64,000 nt of DNA from Pelomonas aquatica (GTDB taxonomy: Bacteria; Pseudomonadota; Gammaproteobacteria; Burkholderiales; Burkholderiaceae_C), in contig NZ_JAPPUW010000001.1 in NCBI RefSeq assembly GCF_026712205.1, positions 372,001 to 436,000 of the forward strand, written 5' to 3'. This document shows, one piece after another, positions 2,633-30,990 of this stretch (position 1 is its first letter; every line of letters begins with the position of its first letter). The notes beneath the pieces were generated by a model. It made no database searches, was not told the origin of the DNA, and was given only the letters and a program-made list of their open reading frames with translations. The translations under genes and the position numbers were made by a program.

Positions 2633-3406
2633 ATGGCCAAGATTTTCTGCATCGCCAACCAGAAGGGTGGCGTCGGCAAGACCACCACCACCGTCAACCT
2701 CGCCGCCGGCCTGGCGCAGCTCGGCCAGCGCGTGCTCGTCGTCGACCTGGACCCGCAGGGCAATGCGACCATGGGCTCCGGCATCGACAAGCGCAAGCTG
2801 GAGACGACGGTCTACGACGTGCTGCTGGAGTCCGCCTCCATCGCCGAGGCCAAGGCCCGCTCCGAGAAGGCCGGCTATGACGTGCTGGGCGCCAACCGCG
2901 AGCTGGCCGGCGCCGAGGTCGAACTGGTGGAGCTGGAGCGCCGCGAGGCCCGGCTGAAGGGCGCGCTGGCCGAGGCGGCCAAGGACTATGACTTCGTGCT
3001 GATCGACTGCCCGCCGTCGCTGTCCATGCTGACGCTGAACGGCCTGTGCAGCGCCCACGGCGTCATCGTGCCGATGCAGTGCGAATACTTCGCGCTGGAG
3101 GGCCTGACCGACCTGGTCAACACCATCAAGCAGATCCACGCCAACCTGAACCACGACCTGCAGATCATCGGCCTGCTGCGCGTCATGTTCGACCCGCGCA
3201 TCACGCTGCAACAGCAGGTCAGCGACCAGCTCAAGGCCCACTTCAACGACAAGGTCTTCGACACCGTCATCCCGCGCAATGTGCGCCTGGCCGAGGCACC
3301 CAGTTACGGGCTGCCGGGCGTCGTCTTCGACCCCAGCTCCAAGGGCGCGCAGGCCTTCGTCGACTTCGCCAGGGAGATGGTGAAGCGCATCGAGACGATG
3401 CGGTGA
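2633..3406 (+). CDS. parA: chromosome partitioning ATPase ParA (Soj)
   Basis: Walker-type ATPase that moves ParB-parS complexes and so segregates newly replicated origins. The 257-residue protein begins with the deviant Walker A loop NQKGGVGKTTT (about residues 9-19), has the Walker A' segment VDLDPQGNATMGSG and the Walker B segment DFVLIDCPPSLSMLTLN. The length fits chromosomal ParA (Soj) rather than the longer plasmid types with an N-terminal HTH. A weak -10-like TACGAT lies about 28 bases upstream of the ATG. The expected downstream partner parB is not here: a GNAT gene overlaps the parA stop by four bases, and parB lies about 19 kb away on the other strand. Confidence 0.97.
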   Translation: MAKIFCIANQKGGVGKTTTTVNLAAGLAQLGQRVLVVDLDPQGNATMGSGIDKRKLETTVYDVLLESASIAEAKARSEKAGYDVLGANRELAGAEVELVELERREARLKGALAEAAKDYDFVLIDCPPSLSMLTLNGLCSAHGVIVPMQCEYFALEGLTDLVNTIKQIHANLNHDLQIIGLLRVMFDPRITLQQQVSDQLKAHFNDKVFDTVIPRNVRLAEAPSYGLPGVVFDPSSKGAQAFVDFAREMVKRIETMR

Positions 3407-22517: not shown

Positions 22518-23420
22518 TCAGCCGCCGCGCAGCCGGTCGAGGATGCCCGAGAGCGCGTCCAGCGAGTCGAAATGGATGGCCAGCTCGCCGCTCTGGCCGC
22601 CGCGCTTGCTGCGCTTCTTCACGCGCACCTCGACGGTGGCGCCGAGGGCGTCGGCGAGTTCCTCTTCCAGCCTCAGCACGTCGCGGCTCTTGTCGCCCTT
22701 CACGCGCAGCAGCGGCGCCTGGCGCGCGGCGCCCTGGGCCTTGGCGACCAGCTTCTCGGCCTCGCGCACGCTGAGCTTCTTGGCCGCGATCTCGCTGGCC
22801 GTCGTGATCTGGGCGGCGCCTTCCAGCGGCAGCAGCGCGCGGGCGTGGCCCATGTCCAGGTCGCCGGCCATCAGCATGTTCTGCACCGGCGTGCTGAGGT
22901 TGAGCAGGCGCAGCAGATTGCTCGCCGCGCTGCGCGAGCGGCCGACGGCCTGCGCCGCCTGCTCGTGCGTGAGGCCGAACTCGTCGGTCAGGCGCTTCAG
23001 GCCCTGGGCCTCTTCCAGCGGGTTGAGGTCCTCGCGCTGGATGTTCTCGATCAGCGCCATCGCGGCGGCGGATTCGTCCGGCACGGCCTTCACCAGCACC
23101 GGCACCTCGCGCAGGCCTGCGAGGCGTGCCGCACGGAAGCGGCGTTCGCCGGCGATGATCTCGTAGGCCACGCCGCCATGAGGCGCGATCGGGCGAACCA
23201 GGATCGGCTGCATGATGCCCTGGGCCTTGATGCTCTCGGCCAGCTCGTACAGCGAGCCCTCGTCCATGCGCGTGCGCGGCTGGTATTTGCCGGCCTGCAG
23301 CTGTTCGAGCTTCAGCGTGCCGGGCGCGCCGTCGCGCTCGGGCGCGGGGGTGTCGCTGACTTTGGGGCCGAGCAGGGCTTCGAGGCCGAGGCCGAGGCCT
23401 TTGGGTTTCTTGGTCGCCAT
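22518..23420 (-). CDS. parB: chromosome partitioning protein ParB (Spo0J)
   Basis: 300-residue DNA-binding CTPase that loads at parS and spreads. The N-terminus TKKPKGLGLGLEALLG is the ParA-stimulating peptide typical of chromosomal ParB. The ParB/Srx domain contains AGERRFRAARLAG (the GERRxRA CTP-binding motif, about residues 90-102) and NIQREDLNPLEEA. The HTH domain (GLTHEQAAQAVGRSRSAASNLLRLL, in two adjacent parts near 150-175) and a C-terminal dimerisation segment follow. The length is standard. It is separated from parA by about 19 kb and lies on the opposite strand, between the RBBP9-like gene and the PrkA operon. The three parS-like sites near parA are its expected targets. Confidence 0.97.
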   Translation of the reverse strand: MATKKPKGLGLGLEALLGPKVSDTPAPERDGAPGTLKLEQLQAGKYQPRTRMDEGSLYELAESIKAQGIMQPILVRPIAPHGGVAYEIIAGERRFRAARLAGLREVPVLVKAVPDESAAAMALIENIQREDLNPLEEAQGLKRLTDEFGLTHEQAAQAVGRSRSAASNLLRLLNLSTPVQNMLMAGDLDMGHARALLPLEGAAQITTASEIAAKKLSVREAEKLVAKAQGAARQAPLLRVKGDKSRDVLRLEEELADALGATVEVRVKKRSKRGGQSGELAIHFDSLDALSGILDRLRGG

Positions 23421-23976: not shown

Positions 23977-24027
23977 GGTTTGCCCTTATCCTGCACAGTT
24001 GGATTTTCAGCCAGTGGAGCAGCGGCG

Positions 24028-24975
24028 ATGACGTTCAAGGTGTTTGTGGATGGCCAGGAAGGCACGACGGGCCTGCGGATTCACGACTACCTCGCGGCGC
24101 GGCGCGACATCGAGGTGCTGAAGATCGCCACCGACAGGCGCAAGGATCCCGCCGAACGCGCCCGCCTGCTGAACGCGGCCGACGTGGCCTTCCTGTGCCT
24201 GCCGGATGCCGCCTCGCGCGAGGCGGCGGCCATGATCGACAACCCCAACACCTGCCTGATCGACGCCAGCACGGCCCATCGCACGGTGCCGGGCTGGACC
24301 TTCGGCCTGCCCGAGCTGGCCAAGGGCCAGCGCGAGGCCATCCGCGCGTCCAAGCGCATCGCCAACCCGGGCTGCCACGCCAGCGCCTTCATCCTGGCCG
24401 TGCGCCCGCTGGTGGACGCCGGCCTGCTGCCGCGCGAGGCGGCCGTCGGCGCCACCTCCATCACCGGCTACTCGGGCGGCGGCAAGAGCATGATCGCCGA
24501 GTACGAGCAGCAGCCGCTGCCGGCCCCTCTGCAGGCGCCGCGGCCCTACGGCCTGGCGCTCAAGCACAAGCACCTGCCGGAGATGATGGCCCACACCGGC
24601 CTGGCCACGCCGCCGGTCTTCATGCCCATCGTCAGCAGCTTCTACAAGGGCCTGGCCGTCAGCGTGCCGCTGCAGCTGGGCCAGCTCAAGCAGGGCACGA
24701 CGCCGGAGCAGGTGCAGGCCGCGCTGGCCGCGCACTATGCCGGCGAGCGCTTCATCGACGTGAAGCCGCTGCGCGACGCGGCCACGCTGGAGAGCGGCTT
24801 CTTCGACGTGCAGGCCTGCAACGACACGAATCGCGTCGACCTCTTCGTGTTCGCATCGGACACGCAGCTGCTGCTGATGAGCCGCCTGGACAACCTCGGC
24901 AAGGGCGCCAGCGGCGCGGCCGTGCAGAGCATGAACGTGCACTTGGGCGTCGAGGAAAGCCTCGGCCTGGTCTGA
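24028..24975 (+). CDS. argC: N-acetyl-gamma-glutamyl-phosphate reductase, type 2
   Basis: Third step of arginine synthesis: NADPH-dependent reduction of N-acetylglutamyl-5-phosphate to the semialdehyde. The 315-residue length and N-terminus [20 protein letters not shown] mark the shorter type-2 ArgC. The catalytic cysteine is in [10 protein letters not shown] (Cys116), and [10 protein letters not shown] and [10 protein letters not shown] are also conserved. The ATG at 24028 is preferred to an in-frame codon 48 bases upstream because it gives the standard N-terminus and lies near GTGGAGC. No other arg gene is adjacent, which is common outside enteric operons. Confidence 0.95.
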
Positions 24976-25050
24976 ACGTGAAAGGTGGCGTTGCGCGGGA
25001 GCGTGGCGTCGCGATACTGCGGTCCGTCTCGACGACTTGAGGACCGCTCC

Positions 25051-27483
25051 GTGGGCAAGACCCGAACGCTGCCCGAGCACGCGCAGCTGCTCGAAGGCGT
25101 GCGCATCGCCAGCGCCGGCAACGCGCTCGGCGTGCCGCTGGCCGGCATGGACCCGCGCTCGCGCCAGAGCATGGCCCAGCAGGCGCTGCGCTGGACCTAT
25201 GTGCTGCGCTCGCGCCAGCGCTGGGTGCGCGACGCCAAGGTGCGCGAGCAGCACCAGGCCCTGGCCCGCGAGACGCTGATCGACAAGCTGGGGCTGGACG
25301 ACCACGAACTGCAGGCCCTGGGCCGGGCGCCGATGCTGGTGGTGCGCGTGCCCTACCAGCACGAGGCGGTCTGCTGGGAGGGCCGCATCTTCCCGTGGGA
25401 ATACGTGCTGGCCGCCGCCACGCGCGAGCAGCGCCGCAGCGCCGCCGAGGGCCTGCGGGCGCTGACCATCATCCGCGAGCTGCAGGTGCAGCACGAGGTC
25501 GAGGGCCGCTGGCAGCCGCTGCCGCGCCAGGCCGTCGTGCTGCCGCCCTGGAAGGCGCTGCGCGTGCTCTTCGTCAACGCGCTGCCGACCGAACTGGGCG
25601 AGCGCTGGACGGTGGAGGGCGAGCTGAAGAACCTCGCCGCCGCGCTGCCGCCCGAGGTGCCCGCGCCGCGCGTGCTGAACTATCCCAGCCTGCAGGAGCT
25701 GGCCGCCGAGCTGAGGCAGCGGCCGCCGCATCTGCTGCACTTTGCCGGCATGGACAGCCACCAGGGCCTGCGCGAGCTGGGCACGCTGCTGGGTAGGGCG
25801 GCGCTGGTCGACGCGCCCGATTCGGACGAGGCCGGCGCGTCGAGCCGCGTGCAGCCCATCGACGAGCTGCTGGCCGATTCGCACCGGCTGCTGGACGGCC
25901 TGCTGCTGCGCGGCGCCGGCGGCTACCCGCAGCTCGTGCACGCCCAGGCGCTGGCCCGGGCCGTGGCCGAGGCCGTGGGCCCCACGCCGCCCTATCTGAC
26001 GACGCTGAATGTGTGGAACAGCGCCGCGCGCCTGGCCCCGATGCTGATCGCCGAGGGCGCGACGCGGGCGGCCCTGGGCTTCCAGGACGCCTTCGACGAC
26101 TCGCTGGCCGAGTACGCGCTGGTGCAGCTGCTGCGCCAGCTGTTCGCCGGCGGCTTCGACCTGCCGGCGGCCTTCCGCAGCGCCTGGGAGGAGGTGAGGG
26201 CCCTGCCCGAGTCCGTGGACGCGACCGGCGTGACGCTGTGGCTGGACGGCCCGGTCTTCGTCGACGCCGCCACCCGCGCCGCCCACGAGGCCCGGGGCCA
26301 TGCGCTGGCCGCGGCCGAGGTCGCCGCGCCGGCGCCGGCCTCGCCCGAGGTGCGTTGCGCGATCGAGCCCTTCCCCGAGCTGAACTATGCGGTGCTGCAC
26401 AACGCCCAGCCGCTGTTCAAGCGCTTCGTGCTGAGCTGCGACGCGCCCGCCGCGGCCGAGCCGCTGGACATCGAGGTGGCCGTCCACATGGGCGACGAGG
26501 AGGCGCGCTTCGAGCGCCGCGTCGTCATGCAGCACGAGCGCGAGAACCTGACGAAGGACATCCATGTGCCGCTGACGGCCGACGTGGCCCGCGGCGTGCA
26601 CGAGGCCATCAACACCAGCCTGCAGGTGCGCGTGCGCCAGGGCGGCGCGCTGCTCTACCACGACAGCCACCGGCTGCGCCTGCTGCCGGTGGACCAGTGG
26701 CGCGACAACCGTCGCGACGGCCAGTGGCTGCCCTCCTTCGTGCTGCCGCGCGACCCGGCCGTGGTGCGTGCGGTGTCGCAGTCGCAGCGCTACAACCGCG
26801 TGCTGCGCGACGACCCCACGGCCGGCTTCGAGGGCTACCAGTGCGTGCCCGACGGCGCCGTGGCGGCGGACGGCCGCATCGACGAGGAGCTGCTGCGCGG
26901 CGTGGACCGCCAGGTCGAGGCCATCTGGGCCACGCTGCTGCACGACTGGCAGCTCGGCTACGTCAACCCGCCGCCCAGCTACAGCCGCCAGCTCGACTCG
27001 CAGCGCCTGCGCATGCCCTCCACCGTGCTGGCCGACCGTGCCGGCACCTGCATCGACCTGGCCCTGCTGTTCGCGGCCTGCCTGGAGCTGGTGGACATCT
27101 ACCCCGTCGTCTTCCTGCTCGACGGCCATGCGCTGCCGGGCTGGTGGCGCCATCCGTCCTTCCGCGAGGCCTATATGCAGATGACCGGCAACTACAGCGG
27201 CGCCGTGCAGGCCGATGCCGGCGGCAGCTCGGCCGCCAATGCGCAGACGGTGCCCTGGCATGCCGGCCGCGCCAGCTGGGACGAGGTGCGCCAGCTGATC
27301 GCCGAACGCAAGCTCGTGCCCATCGAGACCGTGCGCCTGACCGAGCACTGCGGCTTCGTCGAGGCCATCGAGGCCGGCGTCGACGCGCTGAACGACCGCG
27401 CGGACTACGACTCCATGCTGGACATCATCACCGCGCGGCAGCGGCAGATCACGCCGTTGCCGCTGCTGAGGGATGAGCCATGA
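25051..27483 (+). CDS. CHAT-like domain (degenerate) fused to a transglutaminase-like cysteine protease
   Basis: 810-residue fusion. Residues about 85-370 resemble a CHAT caspase-like domain: the RIFPWEYVL core (compare IPWELL), LLHFAGMDSHQG (about 228-239) and TLNVWNSAARL (about 318-328). The catalytic His of the usual GHG and the catalytic Cys of LNAC appear replaced by Met234 and Trp322, so this part is probably a pseudoprotease. Residues about 640-780 form a transglutaminase-like domain with a plausible intact triad: Cys667 (GTCIDLALLF), His693 (GHALPGWW) and Glu759 (PIETVRL). A GTG with GAGGA upstream is chosen as start; another GTG 66 bases earlier is possible. It overlaps the hydrolase gene by four bases. 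Function is unknown; a regulated protease in a conflict system is an inference. Confidence 0.8.
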   Translation: MGKTRTLPEHAQLLEGVRIASAGNALGVPLAGMDPRSRQSMAQQALRWTYVLRSRQRWVRDAKVREQHQALARETLIDKLGLDDHELQALGRAPMLVVRVPYQHEAVCWEGRIFPWEYVLAAATREQRRSAAEGLRALTIIRELQVQHEVEGRWQPLPRQAVVLPPWKALRVLFVNALPTELGERWTVEGELKNLAAALPPEVPAPRVLNYPSLQELAAELRQRPPHLLHFAGMDSHQGLRELGTLLGRAALVDAPDSDEAGASSRVQPIDELLADSHRLLDGLLLRGAGGYPQLVHAQALARAVAEAVGPTPPYLTTLNVWNSAARLAPMLIAEGATRAALGFQDAFDDSLAEYALVQLLRQLFAGGFDLPAAFRSAWEEVRALPESVDATGVTLWLDGPVFVDAATRAAHEARGHALAAAEVAAPAPASPEVRCAIEPFPELNYAVLHNAQPLFKRFVLSCDAPAAAEPLDIEVAVHMGDEEARFERRVVMQHERENLTKDIHVPLTADVARGVHEAINTSLQVRVRQGGALLYHDSHRLRLLPVDQWRDNRRDGQWLPSFVLPRDPAVVRAVSQSQRYNRVLRDDPTAGFEGYQCVPDGAVAADGRIDEELLRGVDRQVEAIWATLLHDWQLGYVNPPPSYSRQLDSQRLRMPSTVLADRAGTCIDLALLFAACLELVDIYPVVFLLDGHALPGWWRHPSFREAYMQMTGNYSGAVQADAGGSSAANAQTVPWHAGRASWDEVRQLIAERKLVPIETVRLTEHCGFVEAIEAGVDALNDRADYDSMLDIITARQRQITPLPLLRDEP

Positions 27484-28841
27484 ACAGCGTCGCGAGCCAG
27501 GCCCTGTGGGCCCAGGTCGGCGAGCAGTTCGACGTGCCCGCGCCCGGCGGCGACGCGACGCGCGCGCCCATCCAGCAGCGCCGCCGCCGCGGTTTCGACC
27601 CGCGCGCCGCCGACGGCCGCGCCGCCGTGCGCCTGGTGCGCGACGATGGCCTGCTGCGCTGGGTCTACGAGCCGCCGCTGCGCCAGCTCGGCACGCAGGG
27701 CCGCCGCGGCTGGCGCAGCTACAGCGCCGAGTCGCGCGAGACGGTGCAGCGCATCGCCTTTCCCGAGCTGGGCGAGAACGCCGTCACGGCCGGCCTCGTC
27801 AAGCTGGACCGCCACCTCAACCCCGTGCTCGCCGACCTGGCCGCGCCGACCGACGGCCTGCGCCGCTGGGACGGCCAGGCCTGGGCGCCGCTGCCCGCCG
27901 GCTTCCTGGCCGGGCTGAGCGGCCGGGTGCTGGTGCTGGTGCACGGCACCTTCAGCGCCAGCGCGATGTATGCGAAGGAGTTCAACGCGACGGCCGAGGG
28001 CGAGGCCCTGCTGCAGCGCCTGGCCGACGCGCGCGGCGCCTACGCCGCCGTGCTGGCCTTCGACCACCCGACGCTGTCCGTCGGGCCCTGGCTGAACGCG
28101 CTGGCCCTGCGCGACGCGCTGAGCCCCTGCCCGGCCGAATTCGACTTCGTCGGCCACAGCCGCGGCGGCCTCGTCATCTCCTGGCTGCTGCGCATGGCGC
28201 CCGGGCTGCGCGCGCGCCAGGCCCTCTTCGTCGGCGCGCCGCTGGCCGGCACCTCGCTGGCCGCGCCGGACAAGCTGCGCCAGGCCCTGGACACGCTGGC
28301 CAGCTTTGCCGACGCCGTGGCCGAGGCGGCCTCCCAGGCCCGCAAGATCGCCCCACCGGGCCTGGACGCGCTGGCCCTGGGCGTGGGCGGCCTGGCCTGT
28401 GTGCTGGGCAAGGTGCTGCAGCTCGGCGCCCGCACGCCGCTGGCCGACGCGGGCGTCGGCCTCGTGCCGGGGCTGCTGGCGATGGGGCGGGTGGACAACA
28501 ACCTGGAGCTGGCCCAGCTCTGGCCGCTGCAGGGGTCGGCATCGGGCGTCGACATGCGCGCCATCGGCGGCAGCTTCCGGCCCGCCGAGGTCAACGAGCC
28601 GCTGTGGAAGCTGTGGAAGCGCGTGACCCACGTCAAGGGCCAGGCCCTGTACTACGGCGCCGACCTGATCTTCGACCAGCCCAACGACCTCGTCGTCGAC
28701 ACCGCCGCGATGAACCGGCTCGGCCCGCTGACGCTGGCGGCGCCGCAGTGGGAGGACCTCGGCGTCAGCGCCGAGACCCACCACACCAATTATTTCCAGG
28801 ACCTGCGCGTGCTGAACTGGCTGGACCGGCGCCTGCGCTGA
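27480..28841 (+). CDS. alpha/beta hydrolase (lipase-like), partner of the CHAT-transglutaminase protein
   Basis: 453-residue predicted serine hydrolase with no signal peptide. After an N-terminal region of about 145 residues comes LVLVHGTFSASAM (oxyanion-hole HG, about 152-164), then the nucleophile elbow FVGHSRGGLV (Ser227). The acid is probably Asp in QPNDLVV (about 400) and the histidine in THHTNYF (about 430), in lipase-like order. Ala/Leu-rich segments around residues 270-345 may form a lid or touch a membrane. It overlaps the upstream CHAT-transglutaminase gene by four bases (ATGA), so they are translated together. Lipid or peptidoglycan-ester hydrolysis as an effector activity is possible but not shown. 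Confidence 0.85.
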   Translation: MNSVASQALWAQVGEQFDVPAPGGDATRAPIQQRRRRGFDPRAADGRAAVRLVRDDGLLRWVYEPPLRQLGTQGRRGWRSYSAESRETVQRIAFPELGENAVTAGLVKLDRHLNPVLADLAAPTDGLRRWDGQAWAPLPAGFLAGLSGRVLVLVHGTFSASAMYAKEFNATAEGEALLQRLADARGAYAAVLAFDHPTLSVGPWLNALALRDALSPCPAEFDFVGHSRGGLVISWLLRMAPGLRARQALFVGAPLAGTSLAAPDKLRQALDTLASFADAVAEAASQARKIAPPGLDALALGVGGLACVLGKVLQLGARTPLADAGVGLVPGLLAMGRVDNNLELAQLWPLQGSASGVDMRAIGGSFRPAEVNEPLWKLWKRVTHVKGQALYYGADLIFDQPNDLVVDTAAMNRLGPLTLAAPQWEDLGVSAETHHTNYFQDLRVLNWLDRRLR

Positions 28842-29254: not shown

Positions 29255-29884
29255 TCAGGCGATGCCGACCACCTTGTGCATCTGCACCGACAGCCGCCAT
29301 TGCGGGTGCTTCATGCAGTAGTCCACCGCCGCCTTCGTGTGCTCGCGCTGCAGCACGGAGTCCATCGGCTGCAGGAAGAAGTGCTGGAAGTCCAGGCCGG
29401 CAAAGCGCTCGGGCCGGGCCAGCGGCTGGGGGTAGACCAGCTTCAGCTCGTGGCCCGAGGTCAGCAGCAGCGGCGCGTCGGCCTTGGGGCTGACGCAGAT
29501 CCAGTCCAGGCCCGGCGGCGCGGGCTGGGTGCCGTTGGTCTCGACGGCGACCTCGAAGCCGCGCGCATGCAGCGCGGCGATCAGCGGCGCGTCCAGCTGC
29601 AGCAGCGGCTCGCCGCCGGTGCAGACGACATACGGCCTTCCGCCGCCGGGCCAGGCCTTCGCGATCGTGTCCGCCAGCGCATCGGCCGTCGCGAACTTGC
29701 CGCCGCCCTCGCCGTCCGTGCCGACGAAGTCCGTGTCGCAGAAGCTGCAGACCGCCGCTGCGCGGTCCTGCTCGCGGCCGGTCCAGAGGTTGCAGCCGGC
29801 AAAGCGGCAGAACACGGCCGCGCGGCCGGCCTGGGCGCCCTCGCCCTGCAGCGTGTAGAACAGCTCTTTGACGGAATAGGTCAT
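29255..29884 (-). CDS. queE: 7-carboxy-7-deazaguanine synthase QueE
   Basis: Radical-SAM enzyme that converts 6-carboxy-5,6,7,8-tetrahydropterin to 7-carboxy-7-deazaguanine in queuosine and preQ0 synthesis. The 209-residue protein begins VKELFYTLQGEG. Its cluster-binding cysteines are spaced CX14CX2C (GCNLW...VCSFCDTD) instead of the usual CX3CX2C; the same expanded form is known from Burkholderia multivorans QueE. The glycine-rich VCTGGEPLLQLD and VETNGT motifs follow. It overlaps the upstream T-fold gene by four bases, giving a compact queuosine operon. Confidence 0.96.
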   Translation of the reverse strand: MTYSVKELFYTLQGEGAQAGRAAVFCRFAGCNLWTGREQDRAAAVCSFCDTDFVGTDGEGGGKFATADALADTIAKAWPGGGRPYVVCTGGEPLLQLDAPLIAALHARGFEVAVETNGTQPAPPGLDWICVSPKADAPLLLTSGHELKLVYPQPLARPERFAGLDFQHFFLQPMDSVLQREHTKAAVDYCMKHPQWRLSVQMHKVVGIA

Positions 29885-30990
29885 ACGGGAATCAGCTCTT
29901 CCGAGTCGGCACGGCTGACGATGGCGCCCGAGCCGCGCGTCTCGTAGACGTCCACGCGGTCGATCTGCGGCAGCGCGCCGCCGCCCTCGCGCAGCACCCA
30001 GGCCGCGATGCTCGCCGCGTCGCCGTCGTGAAGCCCCTGCAAGTTGGCGTTGTCGAACAGCGGATGGTGGTCCAGCCGCTTGAAGATCGGGTTGAACAGC
30101 GTCTTCACATCGCCGAAGTCCACCGTCCAGCCCATGACCTGGTCCAGCGGCGCGGCCAGGTGCAGGCGCAGCGTGAAGGTGTGGCCGTGGATGCCCGCCA
30201 GCGGGTGGCCGCCGGGCGCGTGGCGCATGCGAACGGCGCTGTCGAGCGTCATCTCCTTCCAGATGCGATAGCTCTGGCCGTTGAAGTTGGCGCCGCTGGA
30301 GCCGGTCTCGTAGACGGTCACCCAGCTCAGCTCCGGCAGCGCCGGCTTCAGCCGCGCCCACAGCCAGGCCGAGATGTTCTCGCTGGTCGGGTTCTGCAGG
30401 CCGGCGATGTCGTTCAGGCAGCGGTAGTTCAGCTCGAAGTGCAGCGGCGCCCAGACCTCGTCGAGGTGGTCGTAGTCGATGGCCAGGTCGCGTTCGCCGA
30501 GGTCGGCGTTGGCATGCAGGATGACCTCGAAGCCATGGCCGTGCATGCGCCCGCACTGGTGGCCGGCCGGCACATGGGGCAGCTGGTGGGCGGCCTGGAA
30601 GCGGTAGCGGCGCCAGACATGGGCATGGCCGGCACCGTCCAGGTCGACGCCGCTGTGCGGCGTGCTCTGCACGCCGACCTGCACGATGCCGGTCACCTCG
30701 GGGCTCAGGCGGCCGCGCACCCAGCGCGCGAGGTTCTCGTCGGTGGGCTCGGCCAGATGGTCGTTCAGCAGCGCGTGGTCCAGCGGCGCGACCGTGTCGG
30801 CCATGCGCGCGCGCAACGCCTCCACCTCGCCGCCGGGGAAGGCCGCCCAGCCGGCCGGCAGTGCGGCGCGGACGGTCGCGAAATAGCCGTGGCCGTGCAG
30901 GCCATGGCTGCGGTGAGCGGCGGGCAGGGCGGGGATGCGGCAGGCCGACTCGAAGCCGGCCGAGGCACAGTGCAACACGGAAACAGACAT
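29881..30990 (-). CDS. triple T-fold protein of the 6-pyruvoyl-tetrahydropterin synthase/QueD family
   Basis: 369-residue protein made of three consecutive PTPS-type T-fold units (about residues 6-120, 126-245 and 248-369), each with an H-G-H motif at 32-34, 150-152 and 268-270. Only the middle unit keeps the full active site: zinc His135 in QAAHQLP, nucleophile Cys146 in QCGRMHGHG, His150 and His152, and the later VYETGSSG with Glu228. In units 1 and 3 the first zinc His is Cys17 or Val253 and the nucleophile Cys is Ser28 or Leu264. QueD makes the QueE substrate, and the gene overlaps queE by four bases, so the same role is likely. A single chain could form a pseudo-trimer. Confidence 0.9.
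   Translation of the reverse strand: MSVSVLHCASAGFESACRIPALPAAHRSHGLHGHGYFATVRAALPAGWAAFPGGEVEALRARMADTVAPLDHALLNDHLAEPTDENLARWVRGRLSPEVTGIVQVGVQSTPHSGVDLDGAGHAHVWRRYRFQAAHQLPHVPAGHQCGRMHGHGFEVILHANADLGERDLAIDYDHLDEVWAPLHFELNYRCLNDIAGLQNPTSENISAWLWARLKPALPELSWVTVYETGSSGANFNGQSYRIWKEMTLDSAVRMRHAPGGHPLAGIHGHTFTLRLHLAAPLDQVMGWTVDFGDVKTLFNPIFKRLDHHPLFDNANLQGLHDGDAASIAAWVLREGGGALPQIDRVDVYETRGSGAIVSRADSEELIPV

What the first reader, a model, noticed from the sequence alone, without database searches (positions are those of the whole stretch)
25051..28841. Operon of an inactive-looking CHAT domain fused to an intact transglutaminase-like protease, plus a lipase-like hydrolase
Seen: the CHAT-like fold signature (FPWEYVL, LLHFAG, TLNVWNSA) lacks its catalytic His and Cys (Met234, Trp322), while the fused C-terminal transglutaminase-like domain keeps a Cys667-His693-Glu759 set. 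The next gene overlaps by four bases and encodes a serine hydrolase with an intact GHSRGG elbow. Known: CHAT, caspase-like and transglutaminase-like proteases recur in bacterial conflict and programmed-death systems, often with lipases as effectors. Inference: the CHAT part senses or scaffolds, the transglutaminase-like protease is the activator, and the hydrolase is the effector. I know of no described system with this exact pair.
Basis: partly seen in the sequence, partly recalled or inferred. Interest (0 to 1): 0.86.

Follow-up and report, generated by a model that had tools for sequence, protein, structure and literature searches.

The report
Dead-CHAT/transglutaminase protein plus lipase-like partner
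Two coupled bacterial genes encode a protein with a disabled caspase-like domain and a probably working second protease domain, together with a lipase-like enzyme; the pair is inherited and apparently swapped between strains as one unit and is probably, though not proven to be, a self-destruct or anti-virus device.

Summary
P1 (25051-27483, 810 aa) is a CHAT fold with Met234 and Trp322 at the catalytic His and Cys positions, then an Ig-like and a transglutaminase-like domain with Cys667-His693-Glu759. P2 (27480-28841) is a DUF7379 alpha/beta hydrolase with Ser227, Asp403/407 and His435. New: (1) the CHAT pair is missing in 23 of 23 testable family rows; (2) the Ig+transglutaminase module is homologous to the N-terminus of DUF4011 helicases that NCBIfam calls 'anti-phage ProA'; (3) five of five strong DUF7379 relatives examined are fused to CHATs that keep His and Cys, three beside caspase, TIR or SIR2-AAA genes; (4) P2 follows P1 wherever the contig allows, with a 4-base overlap in 19 of 23; (5) in Roseateles kin the pair lies at one site, P1 and P2 agree (Mantel r=0.93) but not with their neighbours, so it looks exchanged as a cassette. 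Against: no defence genes among 8 neighbours, ordinary dN/dS, weak transglutaminase scores, no experiment. Best reading: a new variant of the known caspase-type plus alpha/beta-hydrolase conflict pairing, with protease duty moved to the transglutaminase domain. Defence function about 0.6.

The parts
25051..27483 (+). P1: pseudo-CHAT / Ig-like / transglutaminase-like protein, 810 aa (alternative in-frame GTG start at 24985)
   Evidence: ORF; homologues in 22 genome-contig loci; model, mean pLDDT 74
25336..26310 (+). CHAT-fold region, residues 96-420; catalytic His and Cys positions are Met234 and Trp322
   Evidence: Foldseek to SAVED-CHAT 8tl0 and Csx29; profile match to 8tl0 in which its motif His falls on 234; hhalign to CHATs of fusions; column counts
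26350..26694 (+). Ig-like beta-sandwich, residues 434-548
   Evidence: strands in model; Ig, RelB and UNC119-like Foldseek matches, E about 0.015-0.05; aligned with ProA-type N-termini
26695..27465 (+). Transglutaminase-like peptidase module, residues 549-805; Cys667, His693, Glu759
   Evidence: NF058533 match 445-703 E=4e-46; invariant triad columns; weak DUF553/Transglut_core matches
27480..28841 (+). P2: DUF7379 alpha/beta hydrolase, 453 aa; Ser227 (GHSRGG), Asp403/Asp407, His435
   Evidence: PF24096 86.8 bits over cut-off 33; alpha/beta-hydrolase Foldseek matches, E from 1.9e-6; hhalign to DUF7379 of CHAT fusions, 99.8%
27480..27483 (+). ATGA overlap of P1 stop and P2 start (likely translational coupling)
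   Evidence: same 4-base overlap in 19 of 23 loci, 21 if alternative starts are allowed

Best explanation
A two-gene, probably translationally coupled conflict (anti-phage or programmed-death) cassette. P1 is an adaptor-protease: the CHAT domain has lost catalysis and serves as binding or sensing scaffold; the attached Ig plus transglutaminase-like thiol peptidase, of the type found at the N-terminus of ProA helicases, does the cutting. P2 is a cytoplasmic serine hydrolase (lipase/esterase-like) held in check until P1 is triggered; proteolysis or release by P1 unleashes it on membrane lipid or another ester. Shown: domain make-up, loss and retention of catalytic residues, overlap, co-inheritance, disagreement with the flanks at a fixed site. 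Inferred: peptidase activity, that P2 is P1's client, lipid as substrate, phage as trigger.
For: Invariant peptidase and hydrolase triads with a CHAT lacking its catalytic pair in every testable row (also L132). P2 next to P1 in 36 of 37 loci (window copy and duplicates included; the exception L034 ends at its contig end). 4-base overlap in 19 of 23. P1 and P2 distances correlate r=0.93, P=0.0001, whereas P1 against argC, rbbp9, parB and prkA gives r=-0.21 to 0.05, n.s.; five of six flank-flank comparisons are significant (r=0.37-0.51, P<=0.007). The flank tree rejects P1's classes A and D as clades (AU p=3e-5 and 0.003). Presence is patchy, with pair-less argC sites in four genus members. Relatives in conflict-type settings: DUF7379-CHAT fusions with both CHAT catalytic residues, of which L127 and L128 lie near caspase genes, L128 also beside TIR, and the Ruegeria one beside a SIR2-AAA gene. 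Precedent: a caspase domain always with a neighbouring alpha/beta-hydrolase gene in VMAP systems (PMC7159879 passages); transglutaminase-like peptidases in conflict systems (PMC8195603 passages) and in giant SF-I helicase proteins, proposed to cleave protein as a further line of defence (PMC3710099 passages).
Against: No PADLOC match among 8 scanned window neighbours or for either protein. dN/dS in four close pairs (0.23-0.35 for P1) is like argC (0.20-0.35), so no arms-race acceleration. In the class A-B pair tested (L021-window) only dN is raised, not dS, which weakens replacement for that class. No relative in viral contigs from short-peptide pattern scans; no phage match for P2 (P1 was not searched in phages). 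No recognisable sensor domain apart from the CHAT. Transglutaminase scores are below cut-offs. P2 model confidence is low (64). L016 has a 145-base gap instead of the overlap, L032 94.
Confidence: 0.5

Rival explanations
1. The transglutaminase-like peptidase is itself the effector (cleaving host or phage proteins) and P2 supplies the signal or modifies the trigger; P2 is upstream rather than downstream.
For: The same module stands at the N-terminus of ProA-type helicases, where protein cleavage as a line of defence was proposed; it is the best conserved part of P1 (mean identity 0.68 against 0.49 for the CHAT region).
Against: In the DUF7379-CHAT fusions the hydrolase goes with a CHAT whose catalytic residues are kept, and tblastn with P1 found no match in those four loci, which fits hydrolase and CHAT as the core pair.
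Confidence: 0.22
2. A toxin/antitoxin-like arrangement: P2 is a toxic hydrolase and P1 its cognate inhibitor or degrading protease, kept as an addictive cassette.
For: Co-inheritance, overlap and cassette-like exchange fit any addictive pair.
Against: P1 comes first and is large with an invariant enzymatic triad, unlike usual antitoxins (recalled); no phage match for P2 and no plasmid record covering 80% of P1 or of P2.
Confidence: 0.13
3. A non-immune accessory function, such as envelope or storage-lipid stress handling in Roseateles and kin.
For: Fixed chromosomal place beside argC/parB in 14 loci, purifying selection at ordinary rates, no PADLOC neighbours.
Against: Alleles at that site that disagree with the flanks, no match in 6 of 20 genus members, two of them the more incomplete assemblies, relatives of both halves in conflict-type proteins.
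Confidence: 0.15

Closest known systems
DUF7379-CHAT fusion proteins (L126-L129; Ruegeria pomeroyi WP_051420469.1)
   Same: Same hydrolase family (hhalign 99.8%, residues 138-452 of P2) and same CHAT fold (85%, E=5.8e-6) (L126-L129 only).
   Different: One polypeptide, hydrolase first; CHAT keeps His motif and Cys in 5 of 5; no P1 match, hence no sign of the Ig/transglutaminase module, in L126-L129.
'Anti-phage protein ProA' NF058533 (DUF4011 SF-I helicases with MTES_1575 nuclease)
   Same: Ig-like plus transglutaminase-like module with the same Cys, His and Glu columns.
   Different: P1 scores 157 bits against a cut-off of 1500, over profile positions 1-240 of 1903, and has no Pfam match to DUF4011, helicase, nuclease or DUF3320. 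The source paper of the name ProA was not found.
Caspase plus alpha/beta-hydrolase pairing of VMAP ternary conflict systems (PMC7159879)
   Same: A caspase-superfamily domain paired with a neighbouring alpha/beta-hydrolase gene (passages); that CHAT belongs to the same superfamily is recalled.
   Different: No MoxR or vWA partner among the 8 scanned window neighbours; the caspase-type site is dead; a separate peptidase is added.
SAVED-CHAT filament (8tl0) and TPR-CHAT Csx29 (8eey)
   Same: CHAT fold.
   Different: Csx29 works with Cas7-11 (entry titles) and Craspase is an RNA-activated protease (abstract starts); that 8tl0 is also CRISPR-linked is recalled. No SAVED or TPR was found in P1 by Pfam, and its CHAT catalytic pair is absent.

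Membership tests
CHAT protease (PF12770) | CHAT fold | tested here: met
   Foldseek to 8tl0 E=3.9e-9 and Csx29 7.5e-4; profile 8tl0 E=0.001; but no Pfam CHAT match at E<=1
CHAT protease (PF12770) | catalytic His and Cys | tested here: not met
   absent in 23 of 23 rows with the region and in L132 (V and H there); positions 234 and 322 align with the His and Cys motifs of L126, 234 also with the His of 8tl0
Transglutaminase-like peptidase (DUF553/PF01841 superfamily) | Cys-His-acid triad in order | tested here: met
   C667, H693 in 24 of 24, E759 in 23 of 23; invariant also over 9 ProA-type rows
Transglutaminase-like peptidase (DUF553/PF01841 superfamily) | score over the curated Pfam cut-off | tested here: not met
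   DUF553 14.8 bits against 20.5 for the P1 module; hhalign to 15 genus Transglut_core rows (3 of 18 left out for their shorter loci) E=0.0014, probability 18%
Transglutaminase-like peptidase (DUF553/PF01841 superfamily) | protease activity | not testable with these tools
   needs biochemistry
Anti-phage ProA (NF058533) | score of at least 1500 bits | tested here: not met
   157 bits, profile positions 1-240 of 1903
DUF7379 hydrolase (PF24096) | curated Pfam cut-off and nucleophile elbow/triad | tested here: met
   86.8 against 33 bits, profile positions 1-144 of 191; S227, D403, D407, H435 in 23 of 23
VMAP/MoxR-vWA ternary conflict system | MoxR ATPase, vWA protein and VMAP partners in the neighbourhood | tested here: not met
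   8 window neighbours scanned with Pfam: ParB, Ser_hydrolase, semialdehyde dehydrogenase, TfoX_N, Radical_SAM, PTPS, MFS, PrkA
Anti-phage defence system | protection against phage | not testable with these tools
   no experiment; PADLOC has no match to either protein

The most novel reading that the evidence does not exclude
A caspase-type conflict protein whose own protease site has died throughout its family and whose catalytic duty passed to a fused transglutaminase-fold peptidase shared with ProA-type anti-phage helicases; it controls a lipase-like killer enzyme, and allelic versions of this two-gene immune cassette are swapped at one fixed chromosomal site in Roseateles, as specificity loci are.
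Probability: 0.35. Interest if true: 0.72.

Novelty: new variant of a known kind. Interest (0 to 1): 0.56.

Why it matters
It joins two halves of bacterial conflict biology seen apart before: the caspase-type plus alpha/beta-hydrolase pairing and the transglutaminase-like module of giant anti-phage helicases. With only two genes and clear active-site residues, it is a small, testable system for asking how dead caspase-like domains act as switches and what the transglutaminase module of ProA does. The alleles at a fixed site offer natural variants for mapping specificity.

Tried and rejected
Defence-island location: not supported for the window (0 of 8 neighbours). For six other loci (L025, L027, L031, L032, L035, L036) I only read gene-caller output by eye, which showed mostly ordinary-looking genes and is no formal scan. 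In L131, the same contig as L029 by length, a PDC-S06/PrrC-like candidate defence gene lies about 3.6 kb from P2.

Rapid arms-race evolution: P1 and P2 are much more diverged than their flanks (median identity 71% and 74% against 90% for argC), but dN/dS in four close pairs is ordinary. Of the 11 pairs, within-class pairs have P1/P2 values near those of the flanks; the pairs of C or D with other classes have both dN and dS raised; the single A-B pair has dN raised but not dS. I prefer cassette replacement for C and D; for B it is open. Class A is well split off in the P1 tree (1.000) but hardly in the P2 tree (0.066).

Mobile carriage: of 63 plasmid records that match P1, none covers 80% of it, and the 25 listed all match the Ig/transglutaminase part. 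P2 has one plasmid match, a CHAT fusion, and no phage match; P1 was not searched in phages. Two viral-contig scans, each on two short peptide patterns, gave no relative.

A PDB profile search with the transglutaminase module gave only insignificant WzzE matches. The promoter/terminator scan gave nothing beyond chance. A first hhalign of the module against 12 transglutaminase references gave 6% probability; the better alignment, 15 references, 18%. PHROGs had no match. Of the 12 genomes with DUF7379 matches over the cut-off, seven are weak (about 33-38 bits) and were not examined; they may be unrelated hydrolases. So the statement on strong DUF7379 relatives rests on four plus the Ruegeria record. 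In some searches at most two candidates per genome were scored, so the counts from those samples are lower bounds.
Full report
What is there. P1 runs from GTG 25051 to 27483 and P2 from ATG 27480 to 28841 on the + strand, overlapping by ATGA. The named relatives with the closest copies are Roseateles/Pelomonas, and the flanking proteins are nearest to Roseateles saccharophilus. The gene before is an argC-type semialdehyde dehydrogenase; after P2 come a TfoX_N protein and radical-SAM and PTPS genes; none of 8 neighbours scanned matches PADLOC. A 1113-aa ORF on the other strand (24007-27348) is best explained as a by-product of 72-74% G+C (inference).

P1 domains. AlphaFold with 24 family sequences gives mean pLDDT 74. 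Foldseek's six PDB matches at E<=0.001 are five SAVED-CHAT filament chains (8tl0) and Csx29 (8eey); separase comes at 7.4e-3, behind one unrelated entry; TM-scores are about 0.2 over the whole model. A profile of the family matches 8tl0 at E=0.001, and the second His of its HFIGHG motif falls on residue 234 of P1 (residue-level reading by eye). In hhalign with the CHAT domains of four DUF7379 fusions the fold aligns (85%, E=5.8e-6), and the HFACHG and NAC motifs of L126 line up with HFAGMD and NVWN (by eye). So residues 96-420 are a CHAT fold whose catalytic positions are Met234 and Trp322. This is a family trait: M, F, V, L or C at 234 and W, E or D at 322 in 23 of 23 rows that have the region, and V and H in the 33%-identical L132. 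The five fusions keep both: HxxxHG, and NAC or NCC.

Residues 434-805 are homologous to the N-terminus of NF058533 'anti-phage protein ProA': E=4e-46 for 445-703 against profile positions 1-240, and a second, weaker stretch (251-335, running past P1's stop) in the genome search. The three ProA-type proteins scanned all carry DUF4011, AAA helicase and MTES_1575 nuclease domains, and two of them DUF3320. The shared module is an Ig-like sandwich followed by a transglutaminase-like domain. C667, H693 and E759 are invariant over 18 rows, 9 of them ProA-type. Pfam support is weak: DUF553 in 13 of 18 and Transglut_core in 5 of 18 module members at E<=0.1. PMC3710099 (passages read) had already assigned a transglutaminase-like peptidase to giant SF-I helicase proteins with MTES_1575-type nuclease and DUF3320 regions, and suggested protein cleavage as a line of defence. 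In the model C667 starts a helix, H693 starts a strand, and E759 comes just after a short strand, in a four-residue helix; Cys on a helix and His on a strand fit that fold (recalled).

P2. PF24096 (DUF7379) at 86.8 bits against a cut-off of 33; Foldseek gives alpha/beta hydrolases, E from 1.9e-6, although the model is poor (pLDDT 64). S227, D403, D407 and H435 are invariant in 23 of 23. No signal peptide was seen by eye; the most hydrophobic stretch (KD 1.81, from residue 295) is in the region I take for the cap.

The pair elsewhere. The overlap is exactly 4 bases in 19 of 23 loci, 21 if alternative starts count; L016 has a 145-base gap and L032 94. P1 with both CHAT and transglutaminase parts occurs in 14 of 20 genus members, in 4 of 399 genomes of the order including the window's, and only in the window's among 398 of the phylum, where the other 30 matching genomes show one part only.

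A cassette at a fixed site. Of 22 genome-contig loci, 13 have argC, rbbp9 and parB before the pair, and so has the window; nine, three of them short contigs, show none of the tested flanks. The distance from argC to P1 is 73-165 bases in 11 of the 13, and about 2 kb in L020 and L024. Four genus members have argC but no P1: L137-L139 have parA nearby, L136 not within the fetched stretch. Over 14 genomes P1 and P2 distance matrices agree (Mantel r=0.93, P=0.0001), but P1 does not follow argC (-0.13), rbbp9 (-0.21), parB (0.05) or prkA (0.05; 13 genomes), nor does P2 follow argC, rbbp9 or parB; five of six flank-flank comparisons are significant (r 0.37-0.51), parB-parA with 9 genomes is not (r=0.29, P=0.09). 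I grouped the alleles into four classes after seeing the P1 identities. A tree of four flanking proteins (13 genomes; L033 left out because it lacks prkA) places L028 with L019 (100/99), whereas P1 and P2 place L028 with L030, and AU tests reject P1's classes A and D as clades of the flanks (p=3e-5 and 0.003). Class A is hardly supported in the P2 tree (0.066). Within classes dN and dS of the pair are near those of the flanks; for classes C and D against others both are raised; for the one A-B pair only dN is (11 pairs). dN/dS in four close pairs is ordinary. I read this as exchange of the whole pair between lineages at one site, well supported for D, open for B.

Wider relations. In 299 phylum genomes the four DUF7379 matches over 60 bits outside the window are in ORFs of 1134-2025 aa, and all four proteins carry CHAT. 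A fifth, on the Ruegeria pomeroyi megaplasmid, is a 966-aa DUF7379-CHAT protein next to a SIR2-AAA protein with PtuA-like matches. L127 and L128 lie within about 1.5 kb of caspase genes, and L128 also beside a TIR gene; neighbours of L126 and L129 were not domain-scanned. PMC7159879 (passages read) states that in VMAP systems a caspase domain always comes with a neighbouring alpha/beta-hydrolase gene.

Mechanism. Most likely P1 senses through its pseudo-CHAT part, its transglutaminase-like peptidase is released, and P2 is activated or released to hydrolyse lipid or another ester, killing or stalling the cell. Only the anatomy, conservation and inheritance are shown; trigger, client and substrate are inferred. 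Defence in the broad sense: about 0.6; this exact order of events: lower.

Novelty. Ten literature searches in the open PMC library gave no description of a CHAT-transglutaminase fusion in the listings, nor in the passages I read of five papers, and no paper naming DUF7379. Subscription papers are not held, and I could not find the source of the name ProA. Both halves have known relatives, so this is a new variant of a known kind.

Noticed in passing
window 2633-3406 (+) and 22518-23420 (-): parA-type and parB genes lie about 20 kb apart on opposite strands; in 8 of 8 relatives' loci where both were found, parA is on parB's strand, beyond the pair, so the window genome seems locally rearranged.
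   Followed up: partly
L181 7419-14223 (Ruegeria pomeroyi NC_006569.1): DUF7379-CHAT protein, then a SIR2-AAA protein with PtuA-like PADLOC matches, then a hypothetical gene: looks like a three-gene conflict system.
   Followed up: partly
   Followed up: no
   Followed up: no
window 29881-30990 (-): The 369-aa PTPS/QueD-type gene has three matching PTPS stretches, an internally repeated form.
   Followed up: no
L136-L139, argC site: The argC sites without P1 hold other genes, in L138 a 252-aa ORF between argC and parA, so this place may be a small variable site.
   Followed up: partly
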